A stretch of 64,000 nucleotides of DNA, from positions 1-64,000 of the IMG/VR virus record IMGVR_UViG_3300026488_000018; one strand, written 5' to 3'. Position 1 is the first letter of the stretch, and each line of letters begins with the position of its first letter. The stretch comes from a virus. The position numbers and the translations under genes are program-made. The notes below the pieces were generated by a model. It was not told where the DNA came from. It saw only the letters and a program-made list of their open reading frames with translations, and did not search any database. This document shows, in pieces, positions 6,526 through 64,000 of this stretch.

Positions 6526-6705
6526 ATGGACAATTGTTGTGAACTTTACGCGAAGTGGCGGCGGGTTGCAAGAGAATTACATTCGCGTATAAAGATTGTT
6601 GATGGGAAGATCCCGAATGATGCGAAGATTATCATGGCTGAGTATAAAGCATTGTTTATCAAGATGATGTTAAACGGGTGTAAGCCGGAGGGGTGTGATG
6701 GTTGA
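6526..6705 (+). CDS. Small hypothetical protein (59 aa)
   Basis: ATG 6526 lies six bases after AGGGGTGA. The product is basic and helical (MDNCCELYAKWRRVARELHSR) with cysteines at both ends (NCC near the start, CKPEGC near the end), which could bind a metal. Its TGA overlaps the next ATG. Not recognised. Confidence 0.55.
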   Translation: MDNCCELYAKWRRVARELHSRIKIVDGKIPNDAKIIMAEYKALFIKMMLNGCKPEGCDG

Positions 6706-7751
6706 TGACCAAGATTTACATTCGCCCGGAGGAGAGACCAAAGTATGAGAGCAGGGGTGTTCGCGTTTACGAAGGCCCGAAAGGTGGCTTGTATGTTTTG
6801 AGTGAGGAACTCCCGGATGATTTAAAACGTGAGCTAGGTGAAAGCGCGACGGAAAACATTAGCGAGAAGTACAAGGAGTACGTTGTTCAAGCATTTAATG
6901 ATATTTTAGATAGGTGCGAATCAGTCCACCGCGGCGACGGTATTGTTTTTAAGTTGAAGGACGGCGATAGTATTATCGTCAAGGGTAATACGATTAAAGC
7001 AGGGAAGTGGATAGTTAAGGGTGATAGACTCGACGAACTGGTCGTTTCCTGGGCATTGTTAAGTGAAGCTGTCAGGGTATTGGAGAAGGGTGAAATTGAA
7101 CTTCCCCGGATTGAAGGTGGTTTGTTCGACGTCGGTGGTATTGCTAAGGTTGAAAGTTTAGAGCAGGCGCTGGCTTTGGTGAGCATTTCGCGCGGGTATG
7201 AGTTTATCCGTGATATCAACGAGGATGAGAGTATTGCTGACGCAGTTGAAATGTTTTTCGGCCCGTGGTTGACGCAGAATGTTTTCGAGTTCAGGAGCGA
7301 GAATGTTTCGGTTGATGAGCTGAGGAAGGGTGATTTCTGGCGCGGCGTTGCAAATTTTCTGAGCGTTTATTTTCAGGTGAAGCACGGGCTACGTATTGTT
7401 TTTGAATCGAGCGGGGATATTAAGAGGGCCGCGAATATTGATACTGCGGCGTATTACTGCAAGAGTGAGGTTCATCTCCCGGTTGATATCCCAGGGAAGA
7501 AGGAGTATGGTTATCGCGGTATTGTTTGGCACGAGTTTCAGCATGCGTTATTTGATTTGGTTGAGAGTGGACCGGTTGAGTTCTGGGCGTATCATATGGC
7601 TATGAGTGGGAAGTTAACTGAGTATGCAAAAACAAACGGCAATGAGGCTGCGAGCGAGGCGTGGGCTCTACTTATCGAGGGTAAGGCAGATGACGAGATT
7701 AAGGAGTGGTTTAAACGTTATGTAGAGGAGGTTAAATCATGGATTCAGTAA
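6705..7751 (+). CDS. GPxGG-motif protein with HExxH zincin-like site
   Basis: 348 residues. The N-terminus (about 6-40) is the module PEERPKYESRGVRVYEGP followed by KGGLYV; GPKGG is at residues 24-28. The same module occurs in the proteins at 29970 and twice in 61000. Near the C-terminus WHEFQHAL gives an HEFQH motif at residues 276-280, the signature of zinc metallopeptidases, followed by helical sequence with candidate third ligands. The middle is unrecognised. It may be a virion-associated peptidase, but position among small early-type genes leaves this open. TGATG coupling links it to the gene upstream. Confidence 0.6.
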   Translation: MTKIYIRPEERPKYESRGVRVYEGPKGGLYVLSEELPDDLKRELGESATENISEKYKEYVVQAFNDILDRCESVHRGDGIVFKLKDGDSIIVKGNTIKAGKWIVKGDRLDELVVSWALLSEAVRVLEKGEIELPRIEGGLFDVGGIAKVESLEQALALVSISRGYEFIRDINEDESIADAVEMFFGPWLTQNVFEFRSENVSVDELRKGDFWRGVANFLSVYFQVKHGLRIVFESSGDIKRAANIDTAAYYCKSEVHLPVDIPGKKEYGYRGIVWHEFQHALFDLVESGPVEFWAYHMAMSGKLTEYAKTNGNEAASEAWALLIEGKADDEIKEWFKRYVEEVKSWIQ

Positions 7752-29688: not shown

Positions 29689-29964
29689 GTGGAATATTAC
29701 GAGAATGAAATAATAGTTGGCTATTTTAACGTCGGCAAACCACTGATAATCACCCGAGTATTGAATACAGACGGTGAAGTTATAGACGGTTTTTTTAGGT
29801 TTTATTTAGATGGAGACGTTATTTTTGAGATGGATGTTGGCGATGTGGTTTTGATGAGTGATATTTTGAGGGATAACGCAAAAGACTTGTACACAGAGAT
29901 GATTAACGGTGCGGTGTCTCTTTCACAGGATAACGGTTTGAAGGATGATAATATGTATAGGTGA
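29689..29964 (+). CDS. Small acidic hypothetical protein (91 aa)
   Basis: First gene after the promoter; GTG 29689 lies six bases after GGAGGTG. It is beta-rich and acidic (VEYYENEIIVGYFNVGKPLI ... GFFRFYLDGDVIFEMDVGDV). It precedes the large GPxGG protein. No family recognised. Confidence 0.55.
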   Translation: MEYYENEIIVGYFNVGKPLIITRVLNTDGEVIDGFFRFYLDGDVIFEMDVGDVVLMSDILRDNAKDLYTEMINGAVSLSQDNGLKDDNMYR

Positions 29965-29969
29965 TAGTG

Positions 29970-32150
29970 ATGAGCCGAAATAAAGAAAGTGCTAGCGCCG
30001 CTGATGCGAATGCAATTTTGGCGAAATATAAAATATCTGTTACCGAGTGTGATGATGTCCCCGCCGAAGAGAGGGTTTATTTAAGTGCTGTTGATTTGGA
30101 GAGATGGGTTAGAAGATATGGCGCAACCGGGTTATGCAGGGGTCCAAGAGGCGGTATTTTTGTTAGGCTTAGTGATTATAAAAAATTGGGTGGGGCGTTA
30201 CAATCTAGTGGGGAAATCGATGAAGATGTTGCACTGAAGAGGTTAGAGAAGAAAAAAGTTAAAGTGGAATTTATCGAAAGTGGTAAATATGATGCAGAAG
30301 TTTATGATATTTTGGGTCAGAATTATATTGTAGCAAAGAATTTTGACATATTTAGTAATGTAATGCAGAAGAAATATTCTGGAAATGGGAAGGAAATAGC
30401 TGCAGCAATGCTGAGAGATATGATTAATAGGTTGTACGGAATGTCTGAAGGCGATATGTTTTTAAGTCAGGATTACAGTAACGTTGATATTAGAAATATA
30501 CACCTGATTGAGAATGGAGTAAAGAGTTTTTACGGGCTGATGATTTTGTCGATGCCGGACGAACTGTTTAATATAATGTGTAAATATGCAAAGACATTAA
30601 AAGATAATGGCAGTGTATCTGCTTCAGTCTTTACTAGAGATGAACAAGAGTATTTGTACAGCATATTTAATGTGAAAAATTGGCAACTAATAGATTTTTC
30701 ATTGAAGAAGTTTTTGTTTACAGGTTATAGTGCGTTTAGTAGATGTGATGATGTGAGTAATATTAGGAGTAATTTGGGTGATGATGTCTGGGATGTTTTG
30801 AGTGGATTGAAAAGTGTTATGGATATAATAAAGGATGATTCCTTTAGTTTGTACAATTTTGGGTTTTTCTTATCGAAGTTTGTAATGGTTAGAAAAAGTA
30901 AAGGGAAAACAACAACAATTTTGAAGACTGATAACATAGGGAATGTTTGGGAAGATTTTTTCAAGTTTAAAAAGAAAGGATTTCTATTGGTTCGTGTTGG
31001 AGATGATTTGAAGAATGCTGTTGATGGTGATAAAACGTTTGTAGAGACTATAGTTAAACCAAGTTTTGTGATATACGGAATTTTGAGAGGCGCAGGCGTT
31101 AGTAGTAAATCAGCATGGGCAGTTTCGAAAGGCGTTAGTGTTATGGCACAGCGAACATACGGCAATTTTAACGGGATTGCACCATATTTGGATTGGTATT
31201 TGCAGAAGTTTGTGACAGGGAACGGACGACCAGTGAGAGTTCCAAATAAGTTTTCTCCAGGGATTGGGAAACTTATAAAGGCGTTGGATAATTTTGTAAC
31301 CCCGATGGATTTGGGTATTTATTTGAACTTTGTGAGAAATTATGTAAAAGAGAGGCACGGTGAACAGGTTGAAGTATATAGGAATTTAAATTTGTTTGAG
31401 GGAAGTATATTTTTAGCAAACAATATCGCCAAAGTAGCCGACAGAGTATTGTTTAAGGATGAAAAGAGAGGGGAGAAGTATTTGAATGCATTGATGAAAG
31501 ACGGTAATGTTATCAAAGGTTATACGTTGTCGACGAGTGTTAATAGAAATGATGTTGAAAAGTTTTTGCAGAGGGGATGGACGAGCGGCGTGTTGGCGAA
31601 GGCAACTATAAAGAGTGACAGCGTTGTTGGCGGGTATTTTGTTGCGGGTGGAGGTTATGTGGATGATTCAGAATTGACAGTTGAAGTTTCACATGATGGA
31701 ATTAAGTTTGAGACAGTTACGATTATACCAAAGAGACCATTGGAAAGGGGCGTATTAAGTCTGGCAGGAAAGGCGGAGAAACCTGAATTGGGCGATTATG
31801 TTAGAGATTTTATGAACTCACTAATATTAGGGATATCACAGGTATCATATGGAAATGCAGATTATGATGAGTATATTGACGCTATATTAGGGGGACTATA
31901 TGTTTATCATAAGGTGGGTGAAAAGCTGTATGGGAATGAATTTATTGAGAAAATAAAGAATGAACATCTGTGGAATAGGGTATTTGAGGCAACTATTATC
32001 GGGATTGGTGGTAACAGAACGATAATTCCAAGCGGGAGCAAAGGTAAATACAGACCATTAAGTGTTTTAAAGTGGAAAGATAAGTTGGTGAGATTTTATA
32101 AGGATATAGGTTTGAACGATGTCGCAGATATAATAGAGAAGGTGGTCTGA
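29970..32150 (+). CDS. GPxGG-motif protein with ADP-ribosyltransferase-like C-terminus
   Basis: 726 residues. Residues 30-75 carry the shared module (PAEERVYLSAV ... GLCRGPRGGIFVRLSDYKKL; GPRGG at 58-62). Residues about 460-590 resemble an R-S-E class ADP-ribosyltransferase: EVYRNL with R471, GYTLSTSV with STS at 521-523, then GGGYVDDSELTVEV where D566-S567-E568 stands at the ExE site. The middle 350 residues are helical and unrecognised. It lies just upstream of the portal, where phages keep minor head proteins with toxin-like domains. A virion-delivered enzyme is plausible; the DxE variant leaves activity uncertain. Confidence 0.55.
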   Translation: MSRNKESASAADANAILAKYKISVTECDDVPAEERVYLSAVDLERWVRRYGATGLCRGPRGGIFVRLSDYKKLGGALQSSGEIDEDVALKRLEKKKVKVEFIESGKYDAEVYDILGQNYIVAKNFDIFSNVMQKKYSGNGKEIAAAMLRDMINRLYGMSEGDMFLSQDYSNVDIRNIHLIENGVKSFYGLMILSMPDELFNIMCKYAKTLKDNGSVSASVFTRDEQEYLYSIFNVKNWQLIDFSLKKFLFTGYSAFSRCDDVSNIRSNLGDDVWDVLSGLKSVMDIIKDDSFSLYNFGFFLSKFVMVRKSKGKTTTILKTDNIGNVWEDFFKFKKKGFLLVRVGDDLKNAVDGDKTFVETIVKPSFVIYGILRGAGVSSKSAWAVSKGVSVMAQRTYGNFNGIAPYLDWYLQKFVTGNGRPVRVPNKFSPGIGKLIKALDNFVTPMDLGIYLNFVRNYVKERHGEQVEVYRNLNLFEGSIFLANNIAKVADRVLFKDEKRGEKYLNALMKDGNVIKGYTLSTSVNRNDVEKFLQRGWTSGVLAKATIKSDSVVGGYFVAGGGYVDDSELTVEVSHDGIKFETVTIIPKRPLERGVLSLAGKAEKPELGDYVRDFMNSLILGISQVSYGNADYDEYIDAILGGLYVYHKVGEKLYGNEFIEKIKNEHLWNRVFEATIIGIGGNRTIIPSGSKGKYRPLSVLKWKDKLVRFYKDIGLNDVADIIEKVV

Positions 32151-32151
32151 A

Positions 32152-32409
32152 ATGTATAGCGACACGTATTTATACCCAATAGGTGATGATGATTGGGTTT
32201 TTAGTAAAATTACGAACGCGTTGGATATTAGTATTGTTGATAGAGAGGAGTTTAGAGTGTTTGAAGTTGATGAGTTAATTTTAACGGAGTTGATATATTT
32301 GAATCCGTTAATACCAGTGTTTACAGATGGGCGCGGGTATTATGTCGTTGCTAAAAAGGGCAGTGAAGAAGAAAAAATGTTGGAGGTGTTGATTAATGGG
32401 GTTGTTTGA
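32152..32409 (+). CDS. Small hypothetical protein before the portal (85 aa)
   Basis: ATG 32152 follows the GPxGG gene by one base. It is acidic alpha/beta (MYSDTYLYPIGDDDWVFSKI) and overlaps the portal start by 14 bases. It is probably co-translated with the portal. No family recognised. Confidence 0.5.
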   Translation: MYSDTYLYPIGDDDWVFSKITNALDISIVDREEFRVFEVDELILTELIYLNPLIPVFTDGRGYYVVAKKGSEEEKMLEVLINGVV

Positions 32410-34471
32410 TTTCTTTTTGAATAGGCGTGAGATTAAGAAAAACGGTGATGAACCGGAGGTGGAAATAGAATTTGCGAAGGATGGAACATTTAATGCATTA
32501 ATGTATGCAGGAACAGATAATTTGTTTGATATAAAGGGTCCACTCGATTTTAGGGGGATAAATAAGAGTGCTGTTCAGGCGGGCGTAAGCGGGTTAGCGT
32601 TAGTCCCAATTTTACCGTTTAGTTACGAGTATGTAGAAAGCCTTTATTACAATAGCGATATACTGAGAACGGTTATAACGGTATTGTTGAATGAGACGTT
32701 CGGGAATGGGTTGAGTGTTAAACCGAAGTTTACGAAGAAGTGTTTGGTATGCGGTGCAACGTATGATGAGGATGTCGATGTGTGTGAGGCTTGTGGGTCA
32801 CATAGATTGGTGGGCCCCAATGAGAATGAACGGAAAATTTTAGAGAAGTTCATAGAAAAGGCGAATATTAATAATCAACCCTTGATTGATGTGCTGAGGG
32901 ATTTAGACCACAATTTGAATGTATTTGATAACGCGTATTTGATTGTTAGAAAGAAATACGAGTATAATGACAATGGTGATTTGATAGCAGAAAAACCACT
33001 TGAGATATACAGCGGTGACCCGAAGCGTATTTATTTGGTTATGAGTAGTGATGGTCGTCCGGGTCTTACGCGCGATGGTAAGAATATGGTTTTTGTCTGT
33101 CCTGAGCACAGAGATGAGCCAGTATTGGTTCCAGTAGAGAAGTTATTGGAAGACCCTGATTATATTCCAAGGTGTCCGAAGTGCGGGCGGAAGATGCATA
33201 AGGCTGTAGCAGTTTATGATGTAGGAGGAAGCAAGTATTTTTTTATTGATGGTGAAATTCTTCATTTGAAGAAGTTTACGCCCGGTATTGGATACGGGTA
33301 CCCGCCGATAATTACACTGTTGAAGAAATTGCTTATATTGATTAAGCAGGATTCGTTTATTTTAATGGCTTATCATATGCAGAGACCGCCGCGCGGGCTC
33401 CTTGTGTTGAGAGCAGATAGGAATGCTGTTGCTAAGGCATTTATGACTGCGCGCAGTGAGGCTTATAAGAACCCATGGAATATTGTGCCGTTGGTTATTT
33501 CAGGCCCGGAGAAGGTTGTTGGGAAACGTGTAGTTGAGTGGCTTGATTTGAGTTATAAACCAGATGAAGTGACATTTACCGCGTATCGCAATGAGGTAAG
33601 ACGCGTTGTTGCAAGTATGTGGCAAATTAGCCCAATTTTCCAGGGTGAGGTTAATACTGGTATTTCTAATGAGGGGTTACAAGTTACGATAACAAATAGA
33701 GCGATTATGCGTGAACAGGCTTTGATAAATAATGTGTTGAAGTGGCTGGTTAAGCAGTTGAAGGTTAATGATTGGGTTATAGAGTTAAATCCCAATGAGC
33801 CAATGGATATTTCACGCAAGCTCGACAGAATACGCCGCCGTATTGATATAGTAAAGGAGCTGGAAGAGCTCGGGTATGAAGTTGAGTTAATCCCAACGGG
33901 TGTTGACGGTATTGACTTTAAGTTCGATGGGAAGATTGAACCAAGTAAGAGGTTGAAGAGAGCGATTGAATTGTATGCAAAGAGGAAGGGGTATAGGATT
34001 AATGTTGATGATTTTATTGAAGTAATTGATGTTCTGCCGAAGGTAGGTTTAACGTTTGAGTCGTTTAAGAGGTTAATGTTGCTTGCTGAGTTGGTTGGCG
34101 GGGTTGAGAACATTATTAGAAATGTTGAGCAGGTGTTGAATATTCCACCGCTTGAGCAGATTTTGTATAGGATAAAGTATCCAGACGCTGCGAGTAATTA
34201 CGAGCAGGGTGGTGTACAGATGCTGCAAGATAACCAACAAGAAGTATTATCCCAGGAGCAGGGTATTGAAGAGAACAATGAAGGGGGTTCGTTAACGTTT
34301 GAGGATTGGCTAAATGAATTATTAAATGAAAGTGACGAAGTAGAAGGACAGCCAGCAGAGAGCGGTGTTAAAATGTTTAATTCAGAGGAGGGTGAGAAGT
34401 TTGAGGGGCAACCTGAGATGAATAGAAAGGAGATGCCCGGTATGGAGCATCTATACGAGAGAAGAGAGTGA
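32396..34471 (+). CDS. Portal protein with zinc-ribbon insertions
   Basis: 691 residues. Portal features are FSYEYVESLYYNSDILRTVI, VWEIYSGDP-like wing strands, LHLKKFTPGIGYGYPPIITL, MAYHMQRPPRGLL and VRRVVASMWQISPIFQGE. Two cysteine clusters are inserted: CLVCGATYDEDVDVCEACG (residues about 118-137) and CPEH ... CPKCGRKM (about 238-265), each like a zinc ribbon. The C-terminal 80 residues are acidic and low-complexity. The portal forms the DNA channel of the head. Ribbons in a portal are not something I know as standard. Confidence 0.8.
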   Translation: MGLFDFFLNRREIKKNGDEPEVEIEFAKDGTFNALMYAGTDNLFDIKGPLDFRGINKSAVQAGVSGLALVPILPFSYEYVESLYYNSDILRTVITVLLNETFGNGLSVKPKFTKKCLVCGATYDEDVDVCEACGSHRLVGPNENERKILEKFIEKANINNQPLIDVLRDLDHNLNVFDNAYLIVRKKYEYNDNGDLIAEKPLEIYSGDPKRIYLVMSSDGRPGLTRDGKNMVFVCPEHRDEPVLVPVEKLLEDPDYIPRCPKCGRKMHKAVAVYDVGGSKYFFIDGEILHLKKFTPGIGYGYPPIITLLKKLLILIKQDSFILMAYHMQRPPRGLLVLRADRNAVAKAFMTARSEAYKNPWNIVPLVISGPEKVVGKRVVEWLDLSYKPDEVTFTAYRNEVRRVVASMWQISPIFQGEVNTGISNEGLQVTITNRAIMREQALINNVLKWLVKQLKVNDWVIELNPNEPMDISRKLDRIRRRIDIVKELEELGYEVELIPTGVDGIDFKFDGKIEPSKRLKRAIELYAKRKGYRINVDDFIEVIDVLPKVGLTFESFKRLMLLAELVGGVENIIRNVEQVLNIPPLEQILYRIKYPDAASNYEQGGVQMLQDNQQEVLSQEQGIEENNEGGSLTFEDWLNELLNESDEVEGQPAESGVKMFNSEEGEKFEGQPEMNRKEMPGMEHLYERRE

Positions 34472-52983: not shown

Positions 52984-53178
52984 ATGGTTTTCGCTGATGT
53001 TAGATTTAAGCGAAACGGACATGTTAAGTTTTATACAGATGGGGATAATATTGTTGCAGATTTAGGGGTTATTAAGTTGTATAAGAAGATGAATGGAAGT
53101 TCTTTTAGAGAGTTGATACATGAGTTTGCTGTTGATATGGACGATGAGATTGTTGAGGAGGTTGTTGTAGATGAGTAA
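52984..53178 (+). CDS. Small hypothetical protein (64 aa)
   Basis: ATG 52984 follows GGGGTGAAGTTA. It is beta-rich at the start (MVFADVRFKRNGHVKFYTDG) and ends in an acidic helix (DMDDEIVEEVVVDE). It overlaps queC by eight bases. No family recognised. Confidence 0.5.
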   Translation: MVFADVRFKRNGHVKFYTDGDNIVADLGVIKLYKKMNGSSFRELIHEFAVDMDDEIVEEVVVDE

Positions 53179-54004
53179 GGTTGTTATGGGACTTAGCGGA
53201 GGATTGGATAGTGTAACTTTGATGCATTATTATGCTAAATTGAAGAATTGGGAAGTATACCCAGTATTTTTCTATTATGGTCAGAAGCATGGTGTTGAGT
53301 GGAGGTATGCAAAGGAGAATGTTAAGATTTTGCAAGATGAAGGGTATAACGTCCACGACCTTATAGGAGTTGATATGAGCTTTTATAGCGACTTTATAGC
53401 AGGGTATTCTAATTTGGTTGAAGGAGGAGATGATGTACCAAGACTTGAAGATGTTTTGGGGGAGCCGAATGTTCCGACTTATGTTCCTTTTAGGAATGCA
53501 ATATTTGCGATGTTGCTTGCGGGTTATGCAGAATCTCATGGCGCAGAGTACGTGTCACTTGGTATTGAACAAGTTGATGCTTATTCGGGGTATTGGGATA
53601 CGACGCTGGAATTTGCGAGAAGGGTGGATGAGGTGTTTGAGCTTAATAGACAAAATAGGATTCACTTGATTGCACCGTTTGTGACACTCGATAAGGCAAA
53701 GGAAATAATTATCGGATATAATATTGGTGTTGATTATAGTAAGACTTGGACGAGTTATAAGGTTGCTGGTGTAGATGAAGATGGGAATCCGATAGCATGG
53801 ACAGATGCGCCAAATTCGAGGGAGAGAATACTCGCATTTGCAAAAGTGGGGTTGAGAGACCCAATCAAGTATGACAGGGAGATAGATTGGGATAAGCTAA
53901 TTGAGATGTATCAGAGATATGATGTTAAGAGGGATTTTAAGAAAGTGTTATCCGAAGTTGAAAAGAATTTGGAGTGCCAGTTAAGCAAGAAATGGTATTG
54001 TTGA
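53171..54004 (+). CDS. queC: QueC-like 7-cyano-7-deazaguanine synthase, zinc cysteines lost
   Basis: 277 residues. The PP-loop SGGLDS (residues 9-14) and the family segments FFYYGQKHGVEW, VPFRNAIFAMLLAGYAE, ISLGI-like YVSLGIEQVDAYSGYWD and GLRDP are present. QueC makes preQ0 from carboxydeazaguanine, ATP and ammonia. The usual C-terminal zinc site (Cys after TW, then C-G-x-C-x-x-C) is replaced: TWTSY (193-196 region) and WTDAPNSRER (210-219) contain no cysteine. The only late cysteines are in ECQLSKKWYC at the end. Start overlaps the previous gene; the amidotransferase follows. Confidence 0.85.
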   Translation: MSKVVMGLSGGLDSVTLMHYYAKLKNWEVYPVFFYYGQKHGVEWRYAKENVKILQDEGYNVHDLIGVDMSFYSDFIAGYSNLVEGGDDVPRLEDVLGEPNVPTYVPFRNAIFAMLLAGYAESHGAEYVSLGIEQVDAYSGYWDTTLEFARRVDEVFELNRQNRIHLIAPFVTLDKAKEIIIGYNIGVDYSKTWTSYKVAGVDEDGNPIAWTDAPNSRERILAFAKVGLRDPIKYDREIDWDKLIEMYQRYDVKRDFKKVLSEVEKNLECQLSKKWYC

Positions 54005-54017
54005 GGGGGATTGTACA

Positions 54018-54653
54018 ATGTGCGGTATTGTTGGTTTTAAGGAGTATGTTTCTAATTTTATGGAGGTTTTGGAGAGGAATTCACAGCGTGGTGGGTATTC
54101 TTTCGGCTGTGTCATGTTTGATAGTGGGGCAGATGTTATAAAGGCAAGACATGACAGGTGGAAGGATTTGATAAAAGATGTGAAGTTTCCATTTTTTGCC
54201 CAATTTAGGGCACCAACAACGGGGGAACAGGATGAATTTAGGTGGGACGAAAATTATCCACTAATTTTCGAAAAAGATGGGTATGATGTTTATGTATTTG
54301 GTAATTGTGTAACGAACGATGAATGGTTTAAGAGAGTGAAGGATGAAGATAATAATAACGACATTTACTATATAGGCAAAAATGTTTTAAACAGGGGTTG
54401 GAGTTATTTAAGTGAAATTGAGGGTGTGTTTGCACTGGTGTTTGTGTTTGCTAAAGGAAACAGGGTTGAAAGGGTTATAATGGCGAGGAATACGTATCCG
54501 CTGTATTACAATGAAGTGTTTTATAGTTCGGTTAAATTTGAAGGCCAGAAACCACTGCGCAACGGTATTGTTTATGACTGGTGGAATGATGAAGTGATAG
54601 ATGAATTTGAGCCATGGGATGTTCCATATTTGCTTGAGGAGGTGTTTGGATGA
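54018..54653 (+). CDS. Class II glutamine amidotransferase (Gat of Gat-QueC type)
   Basis: 211 residues. It begins MCGIVGF, so Cys2 becomes the N-terminal nucleophile. Further class II features are NSQRGGYSFG, FPFFAQFRAPT and VYVFGNCVTNDEW (N-G/N for the oxyanion). In many archaea this domain is fused to the N-terminus of QueC and makes archaeosine from preQ0-containing substrate. Here it is a separate gene directly after queC. It therefore points to a 7-amido/formamidino-7-deazaguanine product rather than plain preQ0. It overlaps queE by four bases. Confidence 0.85.
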   Translation: MCGIVGFKEYVSNFMEVLERNSQRGGYSFGCVMFDSGADVIKARHDRWKDLIKDVKFPFFAQFRAPTTGEQDEFRWDENYPLIFEKDGYDVYVFGNCVTNDEWFKRVKDEDNNNDIYYIGKNVLNRGWSYLSEIEGVFALVFVFAKGNRVERVIMARNTYPLYYNEVFYSSVKFEGQKPLRNGIVYDWWNDEVIDEFEPWDVPYLLEEVFG

Positions 54654-55366
54654 TTCTTACAGAGCCAATTGATGAGAAGTTGGATAAGATACCATTGAGT
54701 GAAGTGTTTGAGAGTATTCAGGGTGAAGGTCCTTTTATGGGCCGTAGAGCATTATTTATACGCTTTGCCGGTTGTAATTTGGCAAATGTTTGCAAGTCAT
54801 GTGATACAGATTTCCGGGCGCGTATGTTTGTCACTAAGGAGTGGATTGTTCAGAGAATAATGGATTATGTTAATAAGGGCGGATGGCTTGTTGTATTTAC
54901 TGGCGGTGAACCAGGACTGTATAAGCATGTTATAGATGATATTGTTTGGGAGGTTAAGTGTAAGTCACCCAAGGATGTTCAGTTTCAAGTAGAAACGAAC
55001 GGTATTATTAAGATGGGCGATGAGTTTATCGTGCAGGGCGGTATTGTTGTTGTTAGCCCAAAGAAGGGGTTTGAGGAGTACGCATTGAAGAATTACGCTG
55101 GTAAGAATTATGCTCATTTCAAGGTTGTTGTTGGTGCTCCTAAAGATGACCCAGCATTCTGGAGTTGTGATGAAGGCGAAGGATTTATAAATAAGTTTTT
55201 GGAAGAACATTCAAAGAGTAACGTTTGGGTGATGCCGTGGGGTGGAGATGAAGAAACTTTGAAACGGACGAGACGTTGCGCTTGGGAGATGGCTGTCAGG
55301 TTGGGTATTAATTATTCGGATAGGCTTCACGTTGTTACGTATGGTGAAAGTATTTCGGGGGTGTGA
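54650..55366 (+). CDS. queE: QueE-like 7-carboxy-7-deazaguanine synthase (radical SAM)
   Basis: 238 residues. VFESIQGEGPFMGRRALFIR and FRFAGCNL-type opening, CDTDF, VFTGGEPGLY and QVETNG are standard QueE segments. The radical SAM cluster motif reads C42-x5-C48-x2-C51 (GCNLANVCKSCDT), where most radical SAM enzymes have Cx3Cx2C. QueE converts carboxytetrahydropterin to carboxydeazaguanine. GTGTTTGGATG couples it to the amidotransferase. Confidence 0.9.
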   Translation: MILTEPIDEKLDKIPLSEVFESIQGEGPFMGRRALFIRFAGCNLANVCKSCDTDFRARMFVTKEWIVQRIMDYVNKGGWLVVFTGGEPGLYKHVIDDIVWEVKCKSPKDVQFQVETNGIIKMGDEFIVQGGIVVVSPKKGFEEYALKNYAGKNYAHFKVVVGAPKDDPAFWSCDEGEGFINKFLEEHSKSNVWVMPWGGDEETLKRTRRCAWEMAVRLGINYSDRLHVVTYGESISGV

Positions 55367-55368
55367 TT

Positions 55369-55848
55369 ATGGAGAGTGTCAATGGTTTTAAGATTGTGGA
55401 TAATGAATATCTTGAGTGGAGCGATGATTTTGATTCAGGGCATTTCTTGTTTTTCGATTATCCAAGTAAATGTAGAAGACCACATGGACATTCGTTTGAA
55501 ATAAAGGTTAAAATTTGGGGGGTCCCGAACGAGAACGGTGTAATTTTTGATTTTAATCACCTAAAGGAAATAGTGAAAGAACTCGACCATAAGATGTTTA
55601 TACCCGAGAGAGCAGTGGTTAAGAGAGAAGATGGTTTTGTTGAAGTTGTCACACAGAATGGTGGGTATTTGAAATTGCCAGAGAACGAGGTTATTATCGT
55701 GCCGTATAAGAATGTAACGAGCGAATTTTTAAGTAGGTTTGTTTTGAGACTTATTGCTGAAAAGGCGGGTTATAATGTTAACCACATTGAGGTTTGTATT
55801 AAGGAAGATAAGAGAAGTATGGTCTGTGCTGAGGCTTATAGGGGGTGA
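55369..55848 (+). CDS. queD: QueD 6-carboxytetrahydropterin synthase
   Basis: 159 residues from ATG 55369. The zinc ligands and catalytic cysteine are visible: H25 (SGHFLF), C35 (SKCRRP), H39 and H41 (HGHSFEI). VIFDFNHLKEIV and LDHKMF are also typical. QueD forms carboxytetrahydropterin from dihydroneopterin triphosphate made by the downstream cyclohydrolase. It has an insertion of about 25 residues after LDHKMF, as in many QueD proteins. Confidence 0.9.
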   Translation: MESVNGFKIVDNEYLEWSDDFDSGHFLFFDYPSKCRRPHGHSFEIKVKIWGVPNENGVIFDFNHLKEIVKELDHKMFIPERAVVKREDGFVEVVTQNGGYLKLPENEVIIVPYKNVTSEFLSRFVLRLIAEKAGYNVNHIEVCIKEDKRSMVCAEAYRG

Positions 55849-55854
55849 GTTGTT

Positions 55855-56457
55855 ATGAGTAATGTTAAACCAAGGGAAAGGGTTGTTGAAGCCATGAGGG
55901 TTCTTGTTGAGACTCTTAATAAGGAGTATGGTTGGTTTAATAAAGAAGAGCTGGAGAATACCCCAATAAGAGTTGCGAAATTCTTTGAAGAGTGGTATCA
56001 GATGGCAAAGGAAAATGTTGAGGAGCATATAAAGACATTTGAGACGACCTATGACGGGTTTGTTATGGACACACATATTCCGGTTATTGGAATGTGTAGT
56101 CATCACATGCTTCCTATTATCGGTGAAATGCATATTGTTTATATACCAGGTACTGATGAAGACGGGAAACTTAAGGTTGTTGGACTTTCGAAGCTTAGTA
56201 GAATTGCAAAGAGACATATGTATCAGCCCATGATTCAGGAGGAGTTTACGGAGAAAGTTCTTAATGATTTGATTGAAGAGATTAATCCGATGTGGGCTAT
56301 GGTGGTTGTGAAAGCTCAACATGATTGTAAGAGGATTCGTGGTGCAAGAGATATTAATTCAGAGATGATTACCGTTAGAATTTGGCCTAATAACGAGAAG
56401 GGGCGCGAACTTGAAAAGAAGGCTATTGAGTATTTGAAGCTCGCTGGCGTTCTTTGA
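55855..56457 (+). CDS. folE: GTP cyclohydrolase I (FolE type)
   Basis: 200 residues. Zinc ligands are seen at C81 and H84 (MCSHHMLP) and C158 (QHDCKRIRGARD); VVGLSKLSRIAKRHMYQPMI and QEEFTEKV are the family motifs. It converts GTP to dihydroneopterin triphosphate, the first step of the deazaguanine path. Most euryarchaea use a different cyclohydrolase for this, so a viral FolE of bacterial type is notable. GGGGGTGAGTTGTT precedes the ATG. Confidence 0.95.
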   Translation: MSNVKPRERVVEAMRVLVETLNKEYGWFNKEELENTPIRVAKFFEEWYQMAKENVEEHIKTFETTYDGFVMDTHIPVIGMCSHHMLPIIGEMHIVYIPGTDEDGKLKVVGLSKLSRIAKRHMYQPMIQEEFTEKVLNDLIEEINPMWAMVVVKAQHDCKRIRGARDINSEMITVRIWPNNEKGRELEKKAIEYLKLAGVL

Positions 56458-56565: not shown

Positions 56566-59500
56566 ATGGTCGAGTATATTAAGAAGAGGGATGGAAGAAT
56601 TGTTAAGTTTGACAGAAGTAGAATTGAAAATGCTGTCAGGAAGGCTTTTCTTGATGCCAATAATGGGTATGATGAAAACGACGTGAAGAAAGTTACTCGC
56701 GCCGTGCTGTATCGCATTACTCAGTTGTATGGCGAGGATGATATTCCAAGCGTGGAAGAGATTAACGATATTGTTGAAATAACACTGATGAAGCACGGGT
56801 ATTATGATGTTGCGAAGAAGTTCATAATGTATCGCAAGAAGAAGGAAGATGAGCGCAAGGAGAAGATGCGTATTTGGGGGCTTAAAGAGTGGGTTGATGA
56901 CCCCGTTCTAAAGAAGTTTAGTATTAACGCGTTGAGGGTTCTCGCTTCGCGGTATCCAATTAAGGACGAGAATGGTAATATTGTTGAGCTCCCGAGTGAG
57001 ATTTTCAGACGTGTTGCTGTTGGTGTTGCTATTGCCGAGATGTTGTATGATAAGAAGGTGTTTGATAAGAACGGCGGTCACAGAGCGCGGTATCCAGAGG
57101 TTTTTGAAGGTGAAGAGCTCGAAAAGCTTGGGGTGGAAATTTTTGGGTATAAACTGAATCGTTATATGTGGGAGAGGCTTTATGAGAGGTTTAAGGAACT
57201 TGCCGATGAAGGCAAAATGAAGGTTTCTTGGGAGCAGTTTGTTGAGCTGGTTAAGGATGGTAAGATTACTAAGAATGCGGAGAAGTATGCTAAAGAGTGG
57301 TATGAGTTAATGGTTAATCAGTACATGATGCCTAACACGCCAACGATTAGCAATGCAGGAAGACCGTTTTATATGTTATCAGCATGTTTTGTGAATTATT
57401 TAGAAGATAGTTTAGAAGGGATTATGAAAACAGCCCATGATATAGCAATTATAAGTAAGTATGGTGGTGGTAATGGAGTTGATTTAACTGTGTTGAGGCC
57501 AGAAGGGGATAAGGTTTCGAAGACAAGTGGCGTGAGTTCGGGACCCGTTTCGTTTCTGCATATGTTTGATGCTATTAGTAATGTTATTAAAGAAGGTGGG
57601 ATAAGGCGTTCAGCTGGCATGGCTGTTATGCAGTATTGGCATCCAGACATTGATAAGTTTATTTATGCAAAGAAAGATAACGATGGTAAGAGTGTCCTCA
57701 CCACGTTTAATATCAGTGTTGGTCTTTGGGAGGAGTTCTGGGAGAAACTTGAGAAGGGTGAAGAGTTTGAATTGATTAATCCGCGCGATGGTTCTGTCTG
57801 GGGCAAGAAGGATGCGAGGAAGTTTTTTGAGGAACTTGCTTATATGGCTTGGGCGAAGGCTGACCCCGGTGTGCTGTATTTTGATAGACACAATCAGTAT
57901 AATATTATGCGTGAGAAGTGGGGCGATATTACCGCGACTAATCCGTGTCTAACTGGAGATGCTTTGGTTGTTACCCCCGCAGGTCTAAAGAGAATGGACG
58001 AACTGAGAGAGGGAGATATGGTTTACGTTGGTAACGGGAAGTTTGAGAAGATTGTGAAGTTTTATGATTTAGGTGAACAAGACGTGTACCGTATTGTTAC
58101 AAGGATGGGGTTTGAGATTAAAGCGACGGGTGACCACAGGTTTATGACGAGTCGTGGTGTTAAGAGAGTTGATGAGATGAAGGTCGACGACACAGTATTT
58201 GTTTGGATGAATTGGAAGAGGCAGGAGTATGGTGTTGGTGAATTTGTTCCAGATGTAATTGTTAAGATTGAATATGTTGGTAAGGAGCGTGTTTACGATT
58301 TCGAAACTGATGGCAATAAGTGGTTCTTTGCGAACGGTATTTATAATTTGGATTGCGGTGAAGAAGCTTTGTATCCTTACGAGGCATGCAATTTACTGAG
58401 TATTAATCTGTGGAAGTTTGTAAAGGAGGATGAAAATGGTAATAAGTATTTTGATTGGGATGAATATGCTAAGGTTATTAAGAGCGCCGTGAGAATGCTT
58501 GATGATGTAATTGAGGTGAATAAGTATCCTCTTCCGGAGATTAACGAGATGGTAAAGAAGACGCGGCGCGTTGGTCTTGGCTTTATGGGTATTGCTGAGG
58601 CACTGTTTGAGCTGGGTATTCCATATAATAGCAAGGAAGCATATGATTTAATGAAGAAGTGGGCGGAGACTAACCAGTATTTTGCCATGGTAGAGAGCGT
58701 TGAGCTTGCAAAGGAGAGAGGTGAGTTTCCGGCGTTTGAAGAGAGCGGTTATGTTAGGGGAGAACTCCCCGTCGCTGGGTATTATGAAGTTCCAAGAGAG
58801 GAGTGGAATTATGATTGGGATGGTTTAGTTGAAGAAATAAAGAAGCATGGTATCAGGAATGCGTTTCTTACTACTGCGCCCCCAACGGGTTCGGTTTCAA
58901 TGATTGCTGATACTTCAAGCGGTATTGAACCACAGTTTGCGCTTGCGTATAAGAAGAGTGTTACAATTGGTGAATTCTACTACATCGACCCAGTATTTGA
59001 AAGAGTGTTGAAGGAGAGAGGTATTTACTCGGATGATTTAATTAAGAAGATTGTCGATAACGGTGGTTCAGTGCAGGGTATTGAAGAAGTTCCAGAAGAT
59101 ATTAGAAGAGTGTTTGTTACGGCAATGGATATTCATTGGATGGACCATATTCTGGCGCAGGCGGTATTCCAGTTGTGGACTGATGTGAGTATTTCAAAGA
59201 CGATTAATATGCCCGAAAATGCAACGGTAGAGGATGTTAAGGCTGCGTATTTGATGGGTCATTATCTCGGGTTGAAGGGTGTCACAGTGTATCGCATGAA
59301 CAGTTTAACTTATCAGGTATTGTCAACGGAGAAGAACAAGAGGAAAGAGCCAGAGATGAGCGATTACGCGAAGGAGACATTCGAAAGAATTTTGAATGAA
59401 CACGAATGGTTAAAGTCGTATATCAACCTCGAAGAAATTAGTGGTTATAAGTTAAAGCAGAAGAACGGTGGATTGTTTTTGAATGTTGGTTTTGAGTTTC

Positions 59501-59763
59501 CAAGAAAAGAACCGACCCCCCAGCAGGGTATTGATTTGAGTAAAGTGGGCGAGTTGATTGAGAAGTATGCTAAGAGTGGAGAGAGTATTGTTGATGATGA
59601 TGTATTTAAGGCAATTGATGAAGAACTTCGTAAAAAAGGCCTACTTGGCACCGCGTATTGTCCAATATGCTGGGAGAAGGATAGGGTATTAAGCCCAGTT
59701 GTGTTCGAGGCGGGGTGTAAGACGTGTAAGAGATGTGGTTGGAGCGCTTGTACAGTTGCTTAA
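56566..59763 (+). CDS. nrdJ: Class II (B12-dependent) ribonucleotide reductase with mini-intein
   Basis: 1065 residues including a 136-residue intein. An ATP-cone opens the protein (KRDGRIVKFDRSRIENAVRK). MPNTPTISNAG, LSACFVNYLEDS, GGGNGVDLTVLRPEGD, GGIRRSAGMAVM and TAPPTGSVSMIADTSSGIEP are catalytic-domain signatures. The C-terminus has CPICWEKDR ... CKTCKRCGWSAC, a cysteine-rich end typical of NrdJ. No small subunit gene is present, in agreement with class II. The intein splits TNP from CGEEALYPYEACNLLS, an active-site region often used by inteins. It supplies dNTPs. Confidence 0.93.
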   Translation: MVEYIKKRDGRIVKFDRSRIENAVRKAFLDANNGYDENDVKKVTRAVLYRITQLYGEDDIPSVEEINDIVEITLMKHGYYDVAKKFIMYRKKKEDERKEKMRIWGLKEWVDDPVLKKFSINALRVLASRYPIKDENGNIVELPSEIFRRVAVGVAIAEMLYDKKVFDKNGGHRARYPEVFEGEELEKLGVEIFGYKLNRYMWERLYERFKELADEGKMKVSWEQFVELVKDGKITKNAEKYAKEWYELMVNQYMMPNTPTISNAGRPFYMLSACFVNYLEDSLEGIMKTAHDIAIISKYGGGNGVDLTVLRPEGDKVSKTSGVSSGPVSFLHMFDAISNVIKEGGIRRSAGMAVMQYWHPDIDKFIYAKKDNDGKSVLTTFNISVGLWEEFWEKLEKGEEFELINPRDGSVWGKKDARKFFEELAYMAWAKADPGVLYFDRHNQYNIMREKWGDITATNPCLTGDALVVTPAGLKRMDELREGDMVYVGNGKFEKIVKFYDLGEQDVYRIVTRMGFEIKATGDHRFMTSRGVKRVDEMKVDDTVFVWMNWKRQEYGVGEFVPDVIVKIEYVGKERVYDFETDGNKWFFANGIYNLDCGEEALYPYEACNLLSINLWKFVKEDENGNKYFDWDEYAKVIKSAVRMLDDVIEVNKYPLPEINEMVKKTRRVGLGFMGIAEALFELGIPYNSKEAYDLMKKWAETNQYFAMVESVELAKERGEFPAFEESGYVRGELPVAGYYEVPREEWNYDWDGLVEEIKKHGIRNAFLTTAPPTGSVSMIADTSSGIEPQFALAYKKSVTIGEFYYIDPVFERVLKERGIYSDDLIKKIVDNGGSVQGIEEVPEDIRRVFVTAMDIHWMDHILAQAVFQLWTDVSISKTINMPENATVEDVKAAYLMGHYLGLKGVTVYRMNSLTYQVLSTEKNKRKEPEMSDYAKETFERILNEHEWLKSYINLEEISGYKLKQKNGGLFLNVGFEFPRKEPTPQQGIDLSKVGELIEKYAKSGESIVDDDVFKAIDEELRKKGLLGTAYCPICWEKDRVLSPVVFEAGCKTCKRCGWSACTVA
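57946..58353 (+). other. Mini-intein in the reductase
   Basis: 136 codons (residues 461-596). Block A is CLTGDALVVTPAG with DELREGD; block B is FEIKATGDHRFMT. The C-terminal blocks are VYDFETDGNKWFFANGIYNLD before Cys+1. No homing-endonuclease motifs fit in this length. The last intein residue reads as Asp, preceded by Leu, instead of the usual His-Asn. Confidence 0.85.
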
Positions 59764-59988: not shown

Positions 59989-60630
59989 ATGGGGAGGTTT
60001 TTGTTTGTTAGTGATTTACATGTGAATGACGAAAATTATGAGCGGACTTTGGAAGGACTGAATAACATAGTATCGAAATATGATGTCGATTTTATAGTTA
60101 GCGGGGGCGATAACGGTGAGGTGGATAATAATTTTCTGGATAGTCTGAATGCTTGCTTTTATTCGATATATGGTAACCATGATACGATTGAGTGGGTGAA
60201 AGATTTTAACGGACATTGGCTACATGATGGTATGCATGTGATTGGTGATTTTTCACTGTTGGCATGGAATGGGATTTTTGGGTTTAGTGAAAAATACCCC
60301 AAGTGGTACCATCGTAGCTTAGATGATTTTATTCGTTTTGGGTATAGCTGGGCTAACGCAAGACCAGATGTGTTTGTAAGTCATGAGATACCATACTATA
60401 ACAGGTTTGGCAAGCAAGTACAGGAATATTTGAGTGTTATGAATTACGGTGTAAAGATGATAAAGCCGAGAGTATGGCTTAATGGCCACATCCACAGAGG
60501 CGTTATAATAGACAGAGACACATTCCAGGGTATTGTTTATGTGAATGTCGAGAGTAAGGGAAAGAAAGTTAGCGGTGTTATCGTTGAAAAAGATGGTGAT
60601 GAAATTAATATAACAATTGTAGAGGGATGA
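59989..60630 (+). CDS. Calcineurin-like metallophosphoesterase
   Basis: 213 residues. Motifs are in order: VSDLHV (residues 7-12), VSGGDNGEVD, YGNHDTIE, VSHEIPYY and NGHIHRG. This is the full metal-binding set of the family. Substrate is not predictable; phage members act on nucleotides, RNA ends or phosphoproteins. GAGGTTGATTGA precedes the ATG, adjacent to the upstream stop. Confidence 0.85.
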   Translation: MGRFLFVSDLHVNDENYERTLEGLNNIVSKYDVDFIVSGGDNGEVDNNFLDSLNACFYSIYGNHDTIEWVKDFNGHWLHDGMHVIGDFSLLAWNGIFGFSEKYPKWYHRSLDDFIRFGYSWANARPDVFVSHEIPYYNRFGKQVQEYLSVMNYGVKMIKPRVWLNGHIHRGVIIDRDTFQGIVYVNVESKGKKVSGVIVEKDGDEINITIVEG

Positions 60631-60831: not shown

Positions 60832-61000
60832 GGTTGTACGTATTATCGGTGATAAAGTTATTCCTCTTTTTACTGTTGATGGTGATGAGTTTAGTAATAT
60901 AGAGCTTGCGCGCGAGTATGGGTTTGACGGCATGGATGAAGAGAAAATCAAGAAGCTTCTCTGGGATAATCCATATCTTAATTATAGGGAGGTGGAGTGA
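60818..61000 (+). CDS. Small hypothetical protein (60 aa)
   Basis: ATG 60818 lies inside the end of the previous gene (GGGTGGGTG overlaps it; GTG 60824 is possible). It begins MRVIEVVRIIGDKVIPLFTV and continues NIELAREYGFDGMDEEKIKK, like part of the protein at 59815. The stop overlaps the next ATG. Confidence 0.5.
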   Translation: MRVIEVVRIIGDKVIPLFTVDGDEFSNIELAREYGFDGMDEEKIKKLLWDNPYLNYREVE

Positions 61001-63345
61001 TGCAGGGTGCAGAAAAATTCCAAGGGAAGTCTTATTCAGAAGTTCCACCCGAGTATAGGTATTATGTTGATGAAGAAGAGGAGAGTAAATTTAGGGCAAT
61101 GGGTGTTCCTATATATGAGGGTCCACATGGTGGGAAGTTTATAGATAGACGCGATTTGATTAGACACGGTGAGAGAAATCCAATTGAAGTGTCAAGTACG
61201 AATATTATTAAGTTGAAACAGTATTACGACGCTTTATTGGAACGAGGCAGTATTGATTCGGATGAGATGAAGAATGTGATAGCGGCGTTGAATTGGGTAA
61301 GATTTAAGGGAATGGCCCGCAAGGTGGGTGATTTGAGTGTTATTGATGATAAAATTGCTAAGGTCGAGAAATTAGATATAAATTCGTTAAATAGGGATAT
61401 TTTGTTTAAAGTTCAGTTTAAGGACGGAACATACGCGTATATGAAGAAGCTTTTTCCTGATGAAATGATAGAGGTTAGGGTTGCCGGTATTACAGGACAT
61501 ATTGTTAGTAATATGTTGGAGAAGATTGTTGAAAGTGATGTTTTGAAGAAGCTATTACCGAAAGGGCGTTTGGTTAATTACAACGGCGATTGGTATTTTA
61601 TGACAGATGAAGTGTATGGTGTTTTGGGTGTTAACGCGAGGGATAAGCTGAAGGATATTGATTTCAATAGTGACGACATGATAGATTTGATGGCGGGTTT
61701 GATTGTAATTGGGTTAGGTGATTTACATTTTGCTAATGTATTCTATGAGCCAAACGCAAAGATAATAATTCCATTTGATTTTGATTTCGCAGGAAGTAAC
61801 ATTAAAATTACAAATTTTGGACCACTTGATTTTATTGCGAGGGTTGATAAGGATAAGTTTAAGGATTTGGATTTCAGGAAACTTGCCGATAAAGTTGTTG
61901 AAAAATTTGAAAAATATAACGGTGAACTACGTCAGTATTTGTCAGATGAAGAAGATGTATTGAAGACGTATATTAATGCAGATGAGCGGGACGTTGATTT
62001 TGCGATTGAGAGTTTTTATGAGTGGTTTAATAGACTTGGAAAAATTGTTCAGATGTATAAGGATGGAATGATAAATGGTTTTGGGATGTTAGTTAATGTT
62101 GGTTCGGCGAGACCAAAAGTTAATATTAGGGCGTTTATCGGCGATGATTTATTTAATGAGTTGATAAATGATTTTTCGAAAGCCGCAAAGGTACCGGCTG
62201 AGTATAGGTTGTATATTAATAACTGGCAGGCCCAACGATTTAGGCGCAAGGGTATTAAAGTTTACAGAGGCCCGCGTGGTGGGCTGTATGTTGATATCAG
62301 AGAGTTAAAGAATAGAGGTGTTAATACAGACGAAGTTAAGGTGGTTGAGGAGTTTAAACCGGAGTTACTGGAGGATTCTAAGAATTTGAATGCTATTATT
62401 GCCAGGGTTGCAGAAGAACCAAAATTACGTGTGGCCGTTGTTAACGAATTGAGGAAGGGTATTGATTACATGATAGAGAAACTTATTGATTACAAGTTAG
62501 GGCAGAATAGGGAGGAGTATTTGTTACATTATCGCAGAGCAGTGAATGCAGCATTTGTGCTAAATGCGTTGAATGGGAAAGCAATGGCGAATGATATGAA
62601 CAACGATAATTACAAGGTGGTATCGTTTAGTGATGTTGGTGCGCAACCGGGTGTTATAAATGTGACATCGATGTTTATAGGAGAATTTCTGGATGGGTCA
62701 CATATTTTTGCAAAGGAGTTGACGGATGATGCCGAGTGGGTTGTAAATAATTATGTTGCCCCAGCGTTGATTAAGGTATTGGTTGGTCGCGAGTATTCGG
62801 ACTTTATTCCAACACCGCGTATTATAGTGAAGGATGGTAGAGTGTTTGTTGGGACGAGTGAGGTGTATGGAGTTACTGGCATGGATTTAATGGGTATTCA
62901 AGATATTGAGTTAAAGAACGTGGATAGGTTCATGGATTTTCTCGCCGCTCACTATGTTGTTGGTTTGGATGATAGCCACGAGTCAAATTACTTCATAGAT
63001 CCAGAGAACGGAGTATTTGTACAGTTTGATGTTGATTATGCGTTTATGAGGGGTGGAACGGAGCTTCATATAGGTACTATGGTGGAAAAATTAGCAGAGT
63101 GGTACGGTTTTGATGCAACGGAGGTAAAGAGAAGAGGGATAGAGAAGTTGTTACAAAAAGAAAAGGAGATAATGTTCACTATAAGAGCGTTACGCGCGTC
63201 GTTAGATGTTTATGATATGCCCGAGGATAAGAAGGAGATAATGAAGAAGGGTATTGATAGAGCAGGCGCGTTTATGTTTGAACTTATCAGGAAAGCAAAG
63301 AAAGACCCAGACGAAGCTATACGGTATTTGGACAGCAAAATTTGA
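61000..63345 (+). CDS. Tandem GPxGG plus kinase-like protein, candidate virion effector
   Basis: 781 residues made of two similar halves. Each half starts with the GPxGG module: VPPEYRYYVDEEEESKFRAM ... GPHGG (41-45), and VPAEYRLYINNWQAQRFRRK ... GPRGG (424-428). Each then has a kinase-like domain of PI3/4-kinase or HipA type. Half 1 has TYAYMKKLFP as a possible ATP-lysine strand, GLGDLHFANVF (D241, H243, N246) and PFDFDFAG (D260, D262). Half 2 has HIFAKELTD, GLDDSHESNYF (D658, H660, N663) and QFDVDYAF (D677, D679). It lies just upstream of terminase genes. Lipid, protein or small-molecule substrates are all possible. Confidence 0.6.
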   Translation: MQGAEKFQGKSYSEVPPEYRYYVDEEEESKFRAMGVPIYEGPHGGKFIDRRDLIRHGERNPIEVSSTNIIKLKQYYDALLERGSIDSDEMKNVIAALNWVRFKGMARKVGDLSVIDDKIAKVEKLDINSLNRDILFKVQFKDGTYAYMKKLFPDEMIEVRVAGITGHIVSNMLEKIVESDVLKKLLPKGRLVNYNGDWYFMTDEVYGVLGVNARDKLKDIDFNSDDMIDLMAGLIVIGLGDLHFANVFYEPNAKIIIPFDFDFAGSNIKITNFGPLDFIARVDKDKFKDLDFRKLADKVVEKFEKYNGELRQYLSDEEDVLKTYINADERDVDFAIESFYEWFNRLGKIVQMYKDGMINGFGMLVNVGSARPKVNIRAFIGDDLFNELINDFSKAAKVPAEYRLYINNWQAQRFRRKGIKVYRGPRGGLYVDIRELKNRGVNTDEVKVVEEFKPELLEDSKNLNAIIARVAEEPKLRVAVVNELRKGIDYMIEKLIDYKLGQNREEYLLHYRRAVNAAFVLNALNGKAMANDMNNDNYKVVSFSDVGAQPGVINVTSMFIGEFLDGSHIFAKELTDDAEWVVNNYVAPALIKVLVGREYSDFIPTPRIIVKDGRVFVGTSEVYGVTGMDLMGIQDIELKNVDRFMDFLAAHYVVGLDDSHESNYFIDPENGVFVQFDVDYAFMRGGTELHIGTMVEKLAEWYGFDATEVKRRGIEKLLQKEKEIMFTIRALRASLDVYDMPEDKKEIMKKGIDRAGAFMFELIRKAKKDPDEAIRYLDSKI

Positions 63346-63655: not shown

Positions 63656-63756
63656 TAGTTGCGAGGATAACTGATGGATGGGCTGTTAGCGGGATTACTA
63701 AGAGTGGCGGTGTTTGTGAGAAGAAACCGGAATCCTTATGGAGGGAATATGTATGA
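63652..63756 (+). CDS. Possible very small protein (34 aa) before terminase
   Basis: TTG 63652 overlaps the preceding stop, and the frame ends in a TGA overlapping the terminase ATG. The product reads IVARITDGWAVSGITKSGGV and so on. The overlap at both ends is typical of real genes here, but length and the TTG start make it doubtful. Confidence 0.35.
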   Translation: MIVARITDGWAVSGITKSGGVCEKKPESLWREYV

Positions 63757-64000
63757 GCAAGAAAGTTGTTGTTGATGAAGAATATCTAAAAAAGAAAGAA
63801 AAACTCAGGGAGTATGCCAGAAAACATCCAGTCGAGTTTTTTAAATGGATTACAGGGTTTGAACCTCGCCCGTTTCAGAAAAAATTTATGAAGACTAATA
63901 AGAGGCGTGTTATTGTTGTTACATCACGTCAGATTGGAAAATCGGAAGTTACTGCAGTTAAAGCAATTTGGAAAGCATGGTTGTTTGATAATCAATACAT
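63753..64000 (+). CDS. terL: Terminase large subunit, N-terminal part (cut by window end)
   Basis: 82 residues are visible from ATG 63753 (GGAGGGAATATGT upstream). HPVEFFKWITGFEPRPFQKK and VVTSRQIGKSEVTAVKAIWK are the usual opening of TerL; TSRQIGKS is the Walker A-like ATP site. TerL pumps DNA into the prohead. The nuclease part lies outside the window. Confidence 0.9.
   Translation, partial: MSKKVVVDEEYLKKKEKLREYARKHPVEFFKWITGFEPRPFQKKFMKTNKRRVIVVTSRQIGKSEVTAVKAIWKAWLFDNQY

What the first reader, a model, noticed from the sequence alone, without database searches (positions are those of the whole stretch)
61000..63345. Two GPxGG modules and two PI3K/HipA-like kinase domains in tandem in one viral protein
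Seen: each half of the 781-residue protein has the same plan, a GPxGG module, a lysine-bearing strand, G-L-x-D-x-H-x-x-N, and an F-D-x-D motif about 14-16 residues later. Known: D-x-H-x-x-N plus a metal-binding D-x-D/DFG-like site is the catalytic layout of PI3/4-kinase-like and HipA-like enzymes. Inference: an internal duplication created a two-kinase virion protein, perhaps injected with DNA to phosphorylate host targets.
Basis: partly seen in the sequence, partly recalled or inferred. Interest (0 to 1): 0.85.

Follow-up and report, generated by a model that had tools for sequence, protein, structure and literature searches.

The report
Tandem kinase-like archaeal virus protein
A tailed virus of archaea encodes one protein with two copies of a kinase-like enzyme, each carrying a short tag that related viruses put on head proteins and on quite different enzymes, so it is probably packed in the virus head and delivered into the host cell.

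Summary
The ORF at 61000-63345 (781 aa) is an internal duplication: its halves align over module and kinase region (BLASTP E 4e-21), and both keep K, E-V-Y-G, G-L-x-D-x-H-x-x-N and F-D-x-D. No sequence library recognises it, and Pfam PI3/4K, HipA and APH models all fail. AlphaFold models from a two-row alignment are poor (pLDDT 45-49). Even so, Foldseek returns almost only kinases for half B and PI3K/Vps34/PI4K first for half A. A PI3/4K-like domain fused to a neck-like protein in halovirus HSTV-2 shares the catalytic loop. I call it a divergent PI3/4K-like kinase with moderate confidence; activity is untested. The stronger finding is the GPxGG module. It recurs in six related IMG/VR records beside portal genes. 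There it is fused to a portal-MuF protein, ADP-ribosyltransferases (one protein has module+ART twice), a metallopeptidase and an amidoligase. The virus itself has two more: module+HExxH and module+ART-like. It resembles Pfam's PBCV basic adaptor, which sits on two kinases packaged in chlorovirus particles. Best reading: a head-packaged, tag-bearing double kinase delivered with the DNA. This is a new variant of phage-delivered effectors. Delivery and targets are inferred.

The parts
61000..63345 (+). 781-aa protein: (GPxGG module + kinase-like domain) x2
   Evidence: ORF; Shine-Dalgarno and TGATG overlap; halves paralogous E 4e-21
61036..61170 (+). GPxGG module A (residues 13-57)
   Evidence: module profile A3, E 3e-23
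61351..61869 (+). kinase-like core A: K149, EVYG 204-207, catalytic loop 238-246, D260/D262
61711..61791 (+). catalytic loop and DFG-like stretch A: GLGDLHFANVFYEPNAKIIIPFDFDFA
   Evidence: matches HSTV-2 gp16 loop
62188..62319 (+). GPxGG module B (residues 397-440)
   Evidence: module profile A3, E 1e-25
62617..63099 (+). kinase-like core B: K572, EVYG 621-624, catalytic loop 655-663, D677/D679
62962..63042 (+). catalytic loop and DFG-like stretch B: GLDDSHESNYFIDPENGVFVQFDVDYA
6702..7751 (+). second tagged protein: GPxGG module + HEFQH metallopeptidase-like domain
   Evidence: module E 6e-19; HEFQH motif; no Pfam hit
29961..32150 (+). third tagged protein: divergent GPxGG module + ART-like motifs (VYRNL, YTLSTS), directly upstream of the portal gene
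   Evidence: module E 4e-7; motifs; no family hit
32396..34471 (+). portal protein, used as the context anchor
   Evidence: phrog_18178, E 8e-39; 43% identical to the portals of module-bearing relatives
63738..64000 (+). start of the large terminase gene (63738-65153 in the record), next major gene after the kinase gene
   Evidence: Terminase_6N/6C

Best explanation
The protein is a virion-head effector of an archaeal tailed virus made of two PI3/4K-like kinase domains, each preceded by a ~45-residue GPxGG module. The module acts as a loading tag that places enzymes inside the head, by binding the portal/MuF complex or the DNA. The kinases then enter the archaeal host with the DNA and phosphorylate host components early in infection. 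Shown here: the duplication, the motifs, the module shared with a portal-MuF protein and with several enzymes, and its genomic context. Inferred: the kinase fold (moderate), head packaging (moderate), and delivery, activity and targets (weak).
For: Halves paralogous, E 4e-21, with all catalytic positions kept in both. Half-B model: b-b-b-a-b-b-a-a-loop-b-b order; nearly all PDB top-50 hits are kinases, E 3e-3 to 2e-2, prob up to 0.96. BFVD hits include an unnamed viral protein at E 6e-5, prob 1.00, a Caudovirales portal protein and the HSTV-2 PI3K/PI4K protein. Half-A model: PI3K-gamma, Vps34 and PI4K among the top hits. HSTV-2 gp16 shares the catalytic loop (pairwise E 0.003-0.004) and lies between capsid and tail genes. 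Module profile E 1e-19 to 1e-27 in related viruses, fused to portal-MuF, ART x2, ART, metallopeptidase and amidoligase beside portal genes. PBCV-1 A278L and A282L are DNA-associated virion kinases with the basic adaptor, about 400-530 copies (PMC3281028). MuF/portal fusions to effectors and T4 Alt are precedents (PMC5512222).
Against: Both models have mean pLDDT below 50, and no PDB match reaches E 0.001. PF00454, PF07804 and PF01636 are all negative on this genome. No kinase-bearing relative was found, so conservation rests on two paralogous copies. The module in this protein is below the PF08789 cut-off. The gene lies next to the terminase gene, not in the portal block. There is no proteomics.
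Confidence: 0.5

Rival explanations
1. The domains are kinase-like but act inside the virus-making cell, phosphorylating capsid or DNA-binding proteins during head assembly or packaging. Delivery into a new host is not involved.
For: The gene is adjacent to the large terminase gene. In PBCV-1 the adaptor-bearing kinases bind virion DNA, and the authors suggest a role in DNA condensation.
Against: The same module carries ARTs, metallopeptidases and an amidoligase in relatives, a typical effector list (PMC5512222, PMC5576092). HVTV-1 gp115 joins a weak module to zeta toxin and ART domains.
Confidence: 0.25
2. The kinase-like domains are catalytically dead or structural (neck or connector scaffold), the motifs being relics.
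For: Very divergent; no family HMM matches. In HSTV-2 the comparable domain is an extension of a neck-like protein.
Against: Lys, EVYG, D-x-H-x-x-N and D-x-D are all kept in both halves at 25-28% overall identity. Two active sites would not be expected to survive without selection.
Confidence: 0.17
3. The domains are small-molecule kinases (APH, fructosamine or lipid kinase type) used in metabolism or DNA modification, and the module is an unrelated linker.
For: The catalytic loop resembles APH loops; fructosamine-3-kinase 3f7w is among the fold hits. The virus has a 7-deazaguanine gene set nearby.
Against: PF01636 is negative. The module is shared with head proteins and with enzymes that do not act on metabolites.
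Confidence: 0.08

Closest known systems
PI3/4K-like domain protein gp16 of haloarchaeal tailed virus HSTV-2 and its close relatives (annotated phosphatidylinositol kinase in HRTV-2/11 and HCTV-6/15)
   Same: Archaeal Caudoviricetes; similar catalytic loop (D-x-H-x-x-N plus a D 13-14 residues on); gene lies between capsid and tail genes
   Different: One kinase domain fused to a neck-like N-terminal domain; no GPxGG module; only catalytic-loop similarity to this protein
PBCV-1 virion kinases A278L and A282L (protein kinase + PBCV-specific basic adaptor, PF08789)
   Same: Kinase plus a GPxGG-type adaptor in one viral protein; packaged and DNA-associated (PMC3281028)
   Different: Eukaryotic-type Ser/Thr kinases in an algal NCLDV; single kinase; the adaptor here is sub-threshold except in the relative G157
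MuF toxins and polyvalent proteins of phages (PMC5576092, PMC5512222), including T4 Alt
   Same: Effector enzymes (ART, metallopeptidase, zeta toxin, kinases) joined to portal/MuF or packaged in heads
   Different: Here the common part is the GPxGG module rather than MuF; the polyvalent kinases described there are a truncated Ser/Thr/Tyr family; no tandem PI3/4K-like pair is described in the passages read
G157 776-aa protein (IMGVR_UViG_3300033149_002836)
   Same: Same plan, module-enzyme-module-enzyme, next to a portal-MuF-module gene
   Different: The two enzymes are ART-like, and the two do not match each other in BLASTP

Membership tests
PI3/PI4 kinase (PF00454) | Match to the Pfam HMM | tested here: not met
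   No match at E<=10; HSTV-2 gp16 itself scores 25.5 against a cut-off of 27.1
PI3/PI4 kinase (PF00454) | D-x-H-x-x-N catalytic loop, DFG-like Asp 13-14 residues after the Asn, Lys on the third N-lobe strand | tested here: met
   Both halves
PI3/PI4 kinase (PF00454) | Bilobal kinase fold | tested here: inconclusive
   Kinase-dominated fold hits and kinase-like strand order on pLDDT 45-49 models
HipA kinase (PF07804) | Match to HipA_C | tested here: not met
   No match at E<=10; controls ring
APH / fructosamine kinase (PF01636) | Match to APH | tested here: not met
   No match at E<=10; 13 of 14 controls ring
PBCV basic adaptor (PF08789) | Match above the curated cut-off | tested here: not met
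   15.4 bits against 20.4 for module B; the relative G157 passes at 21.3-23.2; 6 of 8 module sequences match at E<=1
MuF / polyvalent phage effectors | Enzyme joined to a portal, MuF or other head-packaging domain | tested here: inconclusive
   No MuF in this protein; its module is fused to portal-MuF in G157 and to a portal in G158
MuF / polyvalent phage effectors | Packaged in the virion and delivered | not testable with these tools
   Needs virion proteomics

The most novel reading that the evidence does not exclude
The GPxGG module is a general head-loading tag: a short portable domain that archaeal tailed viruses put on any enzyme to be packed and delivered (kinase pair, ARTs, metallopeptidases, amidoligase, zeta toxin), and the same tag serves kinases in chlorovirus particles.
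Probability: 0.4. Interest if true: 0.8.

Novelty: new variant of a known kind. Interest (0 to 1): 0.63.

Why it matters
Few head-delivered effectors are known for archaeal viruses, and a packaged double kinase would be an unusual one. If the module is a loading tag, it gives a sequence handle to list candidate delivered proteins across archaeal tailed viruses, and a simple test: fuse it to a reporter and ask whether heads take it up.

Tried and rejected
Pfam, PHROGs, NCBIfam and PDB sequence searches of the protein gave nothing. Searches for kinase relatives in IMG/VR, GTDB genomes, phage and plasmid records gave none. A degenerate catalytic-loop DNA pattern found no contig. A search of 156 genomes of a phylum whose RNR gene was 44% identical gave one weak hit outside the kinase core, taken as chance; the host stays unknown. 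HipA membership was rejected. Two short GPxGG matches, L014 and L015, are GC-rich 58-aa stretches taken as chance. HGTV-1, closest by TerL, has no module. hhalign of the two-row profile against HSTV-2 gp16 is weak (E 0.011).

Full report
What is there. The window lies in an 89,720-base IMG/VR virus record. The ORF at 61000-63345 encodes 781 aa. It starts at an ATG that overlaps the upstream stop codon and follows a strong Shine-Dalgarno sequence. The next major gene, at 63738, encodes the large terminase. The virus is an archaeal tailed virus. Its terminase is nearest to halovirus HGTV-1 at 29%. Its portal is nearest to the portals of a Methanomassiliicoccales virus and of the HVTV-1 group. 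It also has family B polymerase, an archaeal-type large primase subunit, a Rad51-family protein, an ERCC4 nuclease and an archaeal-type helicase.

The duplication. The halves 1-396 and 397-781 align over 296 residues at 25% identity, E 4e-21, running through the module and the kinase region in the same order. Both keep K149/K572, E-V-Y-G (204-207/621-624), G-L-x-D-x-H-x-x-N (238-246/655-663) and F-D-x-D (259-262/676-679). The loose motif is absent from every other ORF of at least 60 aa in the window, and two copies arise in 5e-6 of shuffles.

Is it a kinase? Sequence libraries say nothing, and PF00454, PF07804 and PF01636 do not match. With only two sequences, AlphaFold gives poor models (pLDDT 49 and 45, pTM 0.41 and 0.45). 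The predicted element order in half B is nonetheless that of a kinase: three strands with the lysine on the third, a helix, two strands, helices, a catalytic loop, two strands, then D-x-D. Foldseek against the PDB returns nearly only kinases for half B, E 3e-3 to 2e-2, among them PI4KIIIbeta, ATM, MEK1, ROCK1, CDC7, BRAF and a fructosamine kinase. For half A the top hits are PI3K-gamma and Vps34, not significant (E 0.7 and above). In the viral library the best hit is at E 6e-5, prob 1.00 (an unnamed 829-aa protein). The list also holds a Caudovirales portal protein and the PI3K/PI4K-domain protein of HSTV-2. That HSTV-2 protein (gp16) lies between capsid and tail genes. It scores just under the PF00454 cut-off. 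It aligns with both halves over the catalytic loop, pairwise E 0.003-0.004. Its first ~130 residues recur in many haloviruses (about position 10,000 in most) without the kinase part. I conclude a divergent PI3/4K-like kinase, at about 0.75; activity is untested.

The module. A DNA pattern for the GPxGG stretch found the same ~45-residue module in other IMG/VR viruses, and a profile gives E 1e-19 to 1e-27. A portal search added two more records. Its companions are: portal + MuF + module (G157, 857 aa), with MuF-type head families at E 1e-11 to 1e-12; module + ART twice in one 776-aa protein, the next gene; portal + module + HEYLH metallopeptidase, then module + ART with a DRAT match at E 2e-4 (G158); module + amidoligase, phrog_2443 at E 2.5e-5 (G159; G160 and L047 are near copies); and module + ART-like in L049. 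The ART of G157's second unit and those of G158 and L049 are related to one another. Assignments resting only on motif are the metallopeptidases, this virus's own ART-like protein, and the first ART of G157. This virus has two more tagged proteins, at 6702-7751 (HEFQH) and 29961-32150 (ART-like, directly upstream of the portal). HVTV-1 gp115 carries a weak module before zeta toxin (3e-20) and ADP-ribosyltransferase (1e-8) domains, and gp116 carries two.

What it works like. Six of eight module sequences match Pfam's PBCV basic adaptor weakly, and G157 passes its cut-off. In chlorovirus PBCV-1 that adaptor sits on two kinases, A278L and A282L, which are DNA-associated and present at roughly 400-530 copies per virion (PMC3281028). 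Phage effectors joined to portal or MuF, and T4 Alt delivered from the head, are established precedents. The simplest reading is that the module loads enzymes into the head and that this one delivers a kinase pair. Loading and delivery are inferences; no virion data exist here.

Limits. Kinase conservation rests on two paralogous copies, because no kinase-bearing relative was found. The models are poor, the host is unknown, and most relatives are contig fragments. Membership in PI3/4K or in PF08789 is not claimed for this protein, since the HMM tests failed.

Noticed in passing
window 53171-56457 and L004:6945-7694 (record 66945-67694): Likely 7-deazaguanine set: QueC (1.6e-34), a radical SAM protein and FolE-like GTP cyclohydrolase; the later gene reads by eye like a DpdA/TGT-type protein (no Pfam hit). 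Probable DNA modification.
   Followed up: partly
window 56566-59763: Ribonucleotide reductase gene that appears interrupted by an intein (CLTGD...NLD before CGEEAL); read by eye only.
   Followed up: no
window 59989-60630; L004:5982-6563; L044:6129-6935: Calcineurin-like phosphoesterases: one just upstream of the kinase gene, one after the terminase, and one between the module-amidoligase and portal genes of relative G159.
   Followed up: partly
L043:7406-9733 (G157): A 776-aa protein with two modules and two different ART-like domains, the same plan as the double kinase.
   Followed up: partly
L050:10647-12119 (HSTV-2 gp16): Deposited as hypothetical protein in HSTV-2 but a PI3/4K-like domain fused to a neck-like N-terminal domain; related haloviruses carry the N-terminal part without the kinase.
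   Followed up: partly
L017:7185-8426, L044:2198-3439, L049:12993-14387: A conserved ~414-465 aa gene, ATP-grasp-like by eye, sits just downstream of the MuF or module-ART gene in several relatives; role unknown.
   Followed up: no
window 1-64000: Constant strong GC skew (about +0.32 to +0.49 in every 4-kb bin), with essentially all long genes on the + strand.
   Followed up: no
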